Source: Micrococcales bacterium 72-143
GTDB lineage: Bacteria > Actinomycetota > Actinomycetes > Actinomycetales > Microbacteriaceae
NCBI GenBank assembly: GCA_001898835.1
Contig: MKVM01000001.1
Location: forward strand, 62,001 to 126,000
DNA: 64,000 bases
Reading direction: 5' to 3'
Shown here: positions 47,058 through 47,749 of the stretch, one piece after another
Position numbering within the stretch: the first letter of the stretch is position 1
Layout: the number at the start of each line of letters is the position of its first letter
Translations under genes and position numbers: made by a program
The notes under the pieces: model-generated
What the model saw: only the letters and a program-made list of their open reading frames with translations
Told to the model about the DNA's origin: nothing
Databases searched by the model: none

Positions 47058-47163
47058 GCGGGTGTGGGATGGCTTTCGAGTCGCTGGCATCGGGACTGGC
47101 GGGAGCGCGCCGCCGACAGGCGGCACGCGGGGGCATGCGACTCGAAAGCCATCCCGCATCCGC
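47058..47163 (-). repeat. Conserved-core / variable-arm palindromic element, copy 3, inverted relative to copies 1-2 (19-bp perfect inner arm; 27-bp stem if 2 G-U pairs allowed; 52-nt core)
   Basis: Inner arms 47066-47084 gggatggctttcgagtcgc and 47137-47155 gcgactcgaaagccatccc are exact reverse complements. Core 47085-47136 is the reverse complement of atgcccccgcgtgccgcctgtcggcggcgcgctcccgccagtcccgatgcca. Confidence 0.96.
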
Positions 47164-47176
47164 GAGCGTGGGCGCG

Positions 47177-47749
47177 CTACGCCGGGAACTCGCCGCGCTT
47201 GACCTGCGGCTTCGGCAGGCGCAGCGGACGCAGCTGGGCCGCGCGCATCGCGGCGTACCAGCCCACCTTCTCCACCTTGTCCGCCCCGAACTTCGCGCCG
47301 AGCTTCTTGCGGAGGGTGCGGGCGAGGAAGAGGCAGTCGATGACGACGAACAGCAGCACGGCCCACACCGCGGTGAGGGCGTAGATGGCGACGTACTGGT
47401 TGGGGATGAAGTAGGTGAGGATGACGAGCACCATGAGGGGGAGCAGGATCTCGCCGACGTTCCAGCGGGCGTCGACGTAGTCGCGCACGTAGCGCTTCTG
47501 CAGGCCCCTGTCGCGCGCCGGCAGGTACTTCTCCTCGCCACGCTCCATGCCGAGCCGGGCGCGGTCGCGCTGCGCGTTGAGCTCGACCTTGGAGGCCTGG
47601 CGCGCCGCCTTGCGGTCGTCGGGCACGAGGGGGCGCTTGCGCGCGGCCTCCTGCTCCTTGCGGCTGGGCGTCGCGCGGCCCTTGCCGACGGCGTTCTCCT
47701 CGGCGGCGTCCGGGGTGGGCGTCGTGTCGTCGGGGGTGTTCTTGGCCAC
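47177..47749 (-). CDS. DUF3043 domain membrane protein
   Basis: Basic N-terminus, YVRDYVDARWNVGEILLPLMVL, two TM segments. Confidence 0.85.
   Translation of the reverse strand: MAKNTPDDTTPTPDAAEENAVGKGRATPSRKEQEAARKRPLVPDDRKAARQASKVELNAQRDRARLGMERGEEKYLPARDRGLQKRYVRDYVDARWNVGEILLPLMVLVILTYFIPNQYVAIYALTAVWAVLLFVVIDCLFLARTLRKKLGAKFGADKVEKVGWYAAMRAAQLRPLRLPKPQVKRGEFPA

What the first reader, a model, noticed from the sequence alone, without database searches (positions are those of the whole stretch)
47137..47179. Fixed position: core orientation follows the upstream gene and the stem starts 13-18 nt past its stop codon
Copy 1 starts 18 nt after the def stop (6699 to 6718). Copy 2 starts 15 nt after the dnaE stop (43235 to 43251). 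Copy 3 reads on the minus strand and starts 13 nt after the DUF3043 stop (47177 to 47163). In all three the core reads in the same direction as that gene, although copy 3 is flipped relative to the chromosome. All three sit in convergent junctions, and these are the only convergent junctions longer than about 200 bp in the window (def/fadD, dnaE/flavin reductase, pyrD/DUF3043). A directional, stop-codon-anchored position strongly suggests a 3'-end function: terminator, 3'-end protection, or insertion into pre-existing terminator hairpins.
Basis: seen in the sequence. Interest (0 to 1): 0.8.

Follow-up and report, generated by a model that had tools for sequence, protein, structure and literature searches.

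The report
Mobile hairpin repeats near gene ends

Summary
The three copies are real: two arms of 27-33 bp around a conserved core, starting 8-18 nt past the def, dnaE and DUF3043 stop codons, in the only three convergent gaps over 200 bp. The own genome has 11 copies and its genus 74 (9 species).

The positional rule mostly holds in the genus: 52 of 73 classifiable copies lie in convergent gaps, nearer the stop of the gene they "read with" in 45 of 52. But in a convergent gap that orientation rule is true by definition. In tandem gaps orientation is random (23 same, 24 opposite over all genera), and 5 copies in other genera sit in frame inside coding genes.

Mismatches in the arms show which strand must fold. 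So selection acts on the opposite strand.

Best reading: a REP/RPE-like palindromic mobile element family, scattered through Micrococcales, with a conserved asymmetric internal loop and hypervariable but paired arms. It is absent from Rfam and not found on plasmids or phages. The mobilising enzyme and any 3'-end function are unknown.

The parts
6710..6818 (-). Copy 1: hairpin element between def and fadD. Paired arms 6710-6738 and 6790-6818 (29 bp, with mismatches), core 6739-6789.
   Evidence: Coordinates; folding both strands; strand.
43244..43361 (-). Copy 2: hairpin element between dnaE and flavin reductase. Arms 43244-43276 and 43329-43361 (33 bp), core 43277-43328.
   Evidence: flavin reductase stop at 43492.
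47058..47163 (+). Copy 3: hairpin element between pyrD and DUF3043. Arms 47137-47163 and 47058-47084 (27 bp), core 47085-47136. G-rich strand reads on +.
6739..6789 (-). Conserved core of copy 1: asymmetric internal loop (G-rich strand: UGGCAUCGGGACUGGCGGGA on one side, GGGGGCAU on the other) around a variable inner hairpin.
   Evidence: Alignments A1 and A3; invariant CGGG and GGCGGG across genera.
6190..6699 (+). def (peptide deformylase), gene whose stop lies next to copy 1
   Evidence: Pfam PF01327.
39723..43235 (+). dnaE, gene whose stop lies next to copy 2
47177..47749 (-). DUF3043 gene whose stop lies next to copy 3
   Evidence: Pfam PF11241.

Best explanation
The copies belong to a family of small (about 110-130 bp) palindromic repeats that have spread through genomes of Micrococcales, comparable to REP repeats and Rickettsia palindromic elements (RPEs). 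SHOWN: each unit is a long paired helix (modal 29 bp) whose sequence differs from copy to copy while staying paired, closed by a conserved asymmetric internal loop and a variable inner hairpin, with recurrent ends CGCTNC / TNCGCTCG. SHOWN: copies occur in different gaps in different species, as clusters of near-identical copies in Microbacterium resistens and Herbiconiux, and in frame inside five genes whose relatives can lack them. INFERRED: the folded G-rich strand, as single-stranded DNA or as RNA, is what an unknown factor supplied in trans recognises at the conserved loop in order to copy the element; new copies survive mainly where they do least harm, just past stop codons and between convergent genes, with the C-rich strand in the sense direction of the near gene. 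INFERRED: once in place the hairpin is usually kept, because orthologous copies go on changing in matched pairs; a secondary 3'-end role, for example shielding the near gene from antisense transcription, would explain that and the polarity.
For: Covariation: 194 double-sided against 6 single-sided (G.U) changes in the outer helix; across genera all 21 outer pairs covary. Folded strand: A.C against G.U 48:7 in the genus (one per orthologous locus) and 27:3 in other genera, combined p=2e-13; ordinary hairpins after stop codons do not show this excess (G.U 41, A.C 28). Dispersal: 74 copies in 9 species with variable loci; same family in Microbacterium, Herbiconiux, Actinomyces and other Micrococcales, none elsewhere in 399 sampled genomes of the phylum. 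Near-identical copies including arms in M. resistens and Herbiconiux. In-frame copies in LigD (two species), TsaB, a PxpB/PxpC-like fusion and CysN (gene names from my reading of the sequences), with coding signal lost only over the element; TsaB homologues 90% and 88% identical over the shared part lack it (P0003, P0006). Location pattern matches published REPs (PMC3733652) and RPEs occur in frame in genes (PMC10969869).
Against: No mobilising enzyme was found: Y1/IS200-type transposase (PF01797) is absent from all nine genus genomes, and no copy carries a gene. No target-site duplication could be shown. Orthologous copies in up to four species have wholly different yet paired arms, which points to long-term selection in place rather than mere selfish spread. 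The closest filled/lacking protein pair (query and P0002) keeps part of the 3' arm, so it looks like a deletion rather than a clean empty site. The few orthologous sites without the core in close species also look like deletions or rearranged gaps.
Confidence: 0.6

Rival explanations
1. A structured RNA with a function in place: the G-rich strand, transcribed from the far convergent gene or as antisense RNA, folds just before it would run into the near gene, and blocks or trims antisense transcription there (a one-way shield), or binds a protein through the conserved G-rich internal loop.
For: Strand-specific wobble tolerance; G-rich strand folds better than its complement in the window copies; arms evolve by matched changes at orthologous loci and close species show G.U intermediates on this strand; the 3' end of the folded strand lies a median 22 nt from the near gene's stop in convergent gaps; paired inverted copies give each convergent gene its own element.
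Against: Copies inside coding genes; random orientation in tandem gaps over all genera; no T-run after the helix on this strand (0 of 70 copies with three T in 8 nt) and no promoter-like TANNNT upstream (1 of 71); flanking genes share no theme; only 1-18 copies per genome, patchily distributed.
Confidence: 0.25
2. One reading: a sense-strand terminator or 3'-end protecting hairpin of the upstream gene.
For: Position 8-25 nt past stop codons, convergent enrichment (47 of 69 element gaps of 130 bp or more against 4 of 52 without, p=4e-12); very stable fold on this strand too; U-poor stem-loop 3' ends exist in GC-rich Actinobacteria (PMC8269248); T is enriched at the first and sixth base past the helix on this strand.
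Against: Mismatches on this strand are the poorly tolerated kinds, A.C 75 against G.U 10, the opposite of what selection on this RNA would leave; orientation random in tandem gaps.
Confidence: 0.1
3. The core is an insertion into pre-existing terminator hairpins.
For: Arms differ at every locus while the core is constant; some congeners have other hairpins at the same place.
Against: Core and arms travel together in recent copies (M. resistens, Herbiconiux); arms share a consensus and a fixed length of about 29 bp; hairpins at core-less sites have unrelated arms, and most such sites have no hairpin.
Confidence: 0.04

Closest known systems
Rickettsia palindromic elements (RPE)
   Same: About 100-150 bp palindromic repeats, dispersed, found both between genes and in frame inside unrelated protein genes; mobiliser unknown (PMC10969869; PMC3733652).
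   Different: Different phylum; no sequence relation shown; a conserved asymmetric internal loop with hypervariable long arms; copies in genes are read in at least two frames, so no conserved peptide.
REP repeats (GTAG and CGTC super-families) and REPINs
   Same: Palindromic, intergenic, mostly between convergent or unidirectional genes and close to 3' ends, sometimes as inverted pairs, sometimes intragenic (PMC3733652).
   Different: Unit is about 110-130 bp instead of 20-40 bp; no GTAG tag noted; no RAYT/Y1 transposase in the genus; that survey lists no Actinobacteria for CGTC repeats.
MITEs (e.g. ERIC, Correia, RUP)
   Same: Short non-autonomous repeats with inverted arms, copy number varying by species.
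   Different: Arms are not a fixed terminal inverted repeat; they vary from copy to copy while staying paired, and no target duplication was shown.
Rfam structured RNAs / candidate structured RNA motifs
   Same: Two covarying helices around a conserved internal loop.
   Different: No Rfam 15 family matches at gathering threshold and the weak hits are chance; no cis-regulated gene theme.

Membership tests
Rickettsia palindromic element-like repeats | Palindromic repeat of about 100-150 bp present in several dispersed copies | tested here: met
   11 copies in the own genome, 74 in the genus; arms of 24-34 bp.
Rickettsia palindromic element-like repeats | Copies inserted in frame inside protein-coding genes | tested here: met
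   Five cases in other genera; TsaB homologues without it. None of the 74 genus copies was shown inside a gene.
Rickettsia palindromic element-like repeats | Sequence relation to a named RPE family | not tested
   No RPE sequences were compared; the resemblance is one of kind only.
REP (GTAG/RAYT type) | 20-40 bp unit tagged GTAG, with a RAYT Y1 transposase | tested here: not met
   Unit much longer; PF01797 absent from all nine genomes while the control genomes ring.
REP (CGTC type) | 20-40 bp unit ending in CGTC | tested here: not met
   GCGTC occurs in many genus copies but inside the arm next to the core, not at an end, and not in other genera.
Intrinsic terminator | Stem-loop followed by a U-run on the transcribed strand | tested here: not met
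   Folded strand 0 of 70, other strand 28 of 70 with three or more T in 8 nt.
Intrinsic terminator | RNA 3' ends at the stem | not testable with these tools
   Needs Term-seq.
MITE | Target-site duplication | tested here: inconclusive
   Bases flanking the helix agree slightly more than expected in the genus (22/40, p=0.04) but never in other genera (0/18), where they are complementary, i.e. part of the helix.
Known Rfam RNA family | Match above gathering score | tested here: not met

The most novel reading that the evidence does not exclude
A new class of mobile element whose single-stranded hairpin (RNA or ssDNA) is recognised through a conserved G-rich asymmetric internal loop while its 29-bp arms drift freely in matched pairs, and which has been kept at gene ends in Micrococcales as a strand-specific barrier against antisense transcription.
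Probability: 0.15. Interest if true: 0.85.

Novelty: new variant of a known kind. Interest (0 to 1): 0.55.

Why it matters
Palindromic repeats that slip in frame into genes are known mainly from Rickettsia; an independent family in free-living Actinobacteria would show that the phenomenon is more general. The mismatch-asymmetry test used here (A.C against G.U in covarying arms) tells, from sequence alone, which strand of a palindromic repeat is the one that has to fold, and could be applied to REPs, RPEs and other repeats whose mobile or active strand is unknown. It also warns against reading function from 'stop-anchored' orientation in convergent gaps, where the rule is partly automatic.

Tried and rejected
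Rfam: no family. Plasmid and phage collections: nothing. Y1/RAYT transposase: absent. Target-site duplication of GNA: suggested by the ends but not upheld. Insertion into terminator hairpins: rejected from core-less sites and from identical arms in recent copies. Independent promoter for the folded strand: no TANNNT excess. Replication-strand bias: counted by hand on single-contig genomes assuming dnaA at position 1, 22 co-directional against 17 head-on, so none seen (coordinates; the assumption was not checked). Palindrome correction without selection (template switching) could give paired arms, but not by itself the strand asymmetry of mismatches. A first wobble control was too small and was enlarged. 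Literature searches for an earlier report of this family found none; the library holds only open papers.

Full report
Terms. 'F strand' is its reverse complement, which is G-rich (GCTGGCATCGGGACTGGCGGGAGCG...CGCGGGGGCATGC).

1. The observation. The paired arms are 29, 33 and 27 bp long and begin 10, 8 and 13 nt past the def, dnaE and DUF3043 stop codons. Pfam identifies peptide deformylase, AMP-binding enzyme, flavin reductase, dihydroorotate dehydrogenase and DUF3043 at the junctions. In a gene call of the window these three are the only convergent gaps longer than 200 bp (with the flavin reductase added). The hairpins fold 7-10 standard deviations better than shuffled sequence.

2. Genome-wide tally. 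The own genome has 11 copies. A covariance model built on 30 copies finds 74 copies in all nine genomes of the genus, which public records name Homoserinibacter and Protaetiibacter. Of 73 copies with both neighbours called, 52 lie in convergent gaps, 12 in tandem gaps on the gene strand, 6 in tandem gaps on the other strand and 3 in divergent gaps. Convergent gaps hold 47 of 69 element-bearing gaps of 130 bp or more, against 4 of 52 without an element in the same stretches (p=4e-12). In convergent gaps the copy is nearer the stop of the gene it reads with in 45 of 52 cases; counting each locus once, in 26 of 31 (p=2e-4). The median distances are 22 and 143 nt.

3. What the orientation rule does and does not say. 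In a convergent gap both genes point into the gap, so every element 'reads with' one of them whatever its orientation. The informative part is only that this gene is the nearer one. In tandem gaps, where orientation could have gone either way, it is not fixed: 12 against 6 in the genus and 11 against 18 outside.

4. Anatomy. The outer helix has 194 matched double changes and only 6 single-sided ones over 30 copies, and all 21 outer pairs covary across genera. The helix has a regular length (modal 29 bp) and recurrent ends, CGCTNC before and TNCGCTCG after it on the C strand. The inner hairpin varies in length and sequence. The unpaired part is strongly conserved and asymmetric: on the F strand UGGCAUCGGGNCUGGCGGGA opposite GGGGGCAU, with CGGG and GGCGGG invariant from Homoserinibacter to Actinomyces. 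Still more distant versions in other Micrococcales keep CUGG...GGGNCUGGCGGGAG...GGAUGG.

5. Which strand folds. Departures from Watson-Crick pairing in the arms are not symmetric. On the C strand A.C outnumbers G.U 48 to 7 in the genus, counting each orthologous locus, position and pair once (p=1e-8), and 27 to 3 in other genera (p=8e-6); C.U outnumbers A.G and C.C outnumbers G.G. Read on the F strand these are G.U, G.A and G.G, the tolerated mismatches. Neutral mutation acts on both strands alike and predicts equal numbers. Ordinary hairpins after stop codons in the same genomes do not show the excess (G.U 41, A.C 28 on the sense strand). The F strand also folds more stably in the window copies. 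In the two closest species the single-step differences are again G.U on the F strand. I take it as shown that the F strand is the one under selection to fold; whether as RNA or as single-stranded DNA is open.

6. Evolution at a site. The same gap carries a copy in several species at about twenty loci. At these loci flanking proteins are 71-99% identical, yet the arms are hardly more alike than those of unrelated copies (0.56 against 0.51), and are still paired. So arms drift at a high rate under a pairing constraint. Where congeners lack a copy, the gap is usually short and featureless, or carries an unrelated hairpin; at one locus in close species the core and one arm were deleted.

7. Mobility. 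Microbacterium resistens and Herbiconiux carry several copies identical or nearly so including the arms. Five copies in Microbacterium lie inside open reading frames, in frame, at places that look like linkers or loops: LigD in two species, TsaB, a PxpB/PxpC-like fusion and the N-terminus of CysN (gene names from my reading of the sequences). The coding signal is positive on both sides and negative over the element only. TsaB homologues 90% and 88% identical over the shared part lack it (P0003, P0006); P0002, otherwise nearly identical, lacks about 31 residues but keeps the end of one arm. No target-site duplication could be established, and no IS200/Y1 transposase is present in the genus.

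8. Distribution. 16 of 300 genomes of the family and 17 of 347 of the order have matches; in 399 genomes across the phylum only the own genome and one of the same family do. Plasmid and phage collections gave none with one copy as query.

9. Comparison with the known. The placement pattern (intergenic, between convergent or co-directional genes, close to 3' ends, sometimes in inverted pairs, sometimes intragenic) is what was reported for REP repeats (PMC3733652). In-frame presence in genes is the hallmark of Rickettsia palindromic elements (PMC10969869). The present family differs in unit length, in the conserved asymmetric loop with drifting arms, and in lacking a known mobiliser, so I call it a new variant of that kind.

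10. Verdict. Observation confirmed; sense-strand 3'-end function not supported; palindromic mobile repeat most likely (0.6), with a strand-specific RNA function in place as the main rival (0.25).

Noticed in passing
L171, L172 (G004, G002), gap after the RidA-like gene: At a site where four congeners carry the element, two close species carry a different long palindrome whose loop GATCCATGAGACAGGAATGTCTC is shared: possibly a second family of armed hairpins.
   Followed up: no
gaps in L095, L122, L028 and others; L018 flank: The same gaps often hold another dispersed palindromic repeat of the form GGTTGAGTAGC...GCGTATCGAAACC.
   Followed up: no
L095 (G005:C1:158800-164000), second copy near the convergent neighbour: A copy with about 80 bp inserted into the conserved core while both arms remain paired.
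   Followed up: no
element ends in most genera: On the folded strand the helix is flanked by GNA on both sides, within GCGNAGC. In other genera the two N are complementary (18 of 18 in the sense that none are equal and all counts fit G with C or C with G apart from two A), suggesting a GNA/GNA internal loop with G.A pairs.
   Followed up: partly
window 20460-20558: Match to the mraW cis-regulatory RNA family, RF01746.
   Followed up: no
L067 (G034), just downstream of the element: A third, slightly different copy of one arm about 35 bp downstream, and an inverted core fragment upstream.
   Followed up: no
L270 (G486): A genome with at least nine short, AT-richer versions whose loop reads CUGGCAUCGGGGCUGGCGUUUAAGGGAGG.
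   Followed up: no
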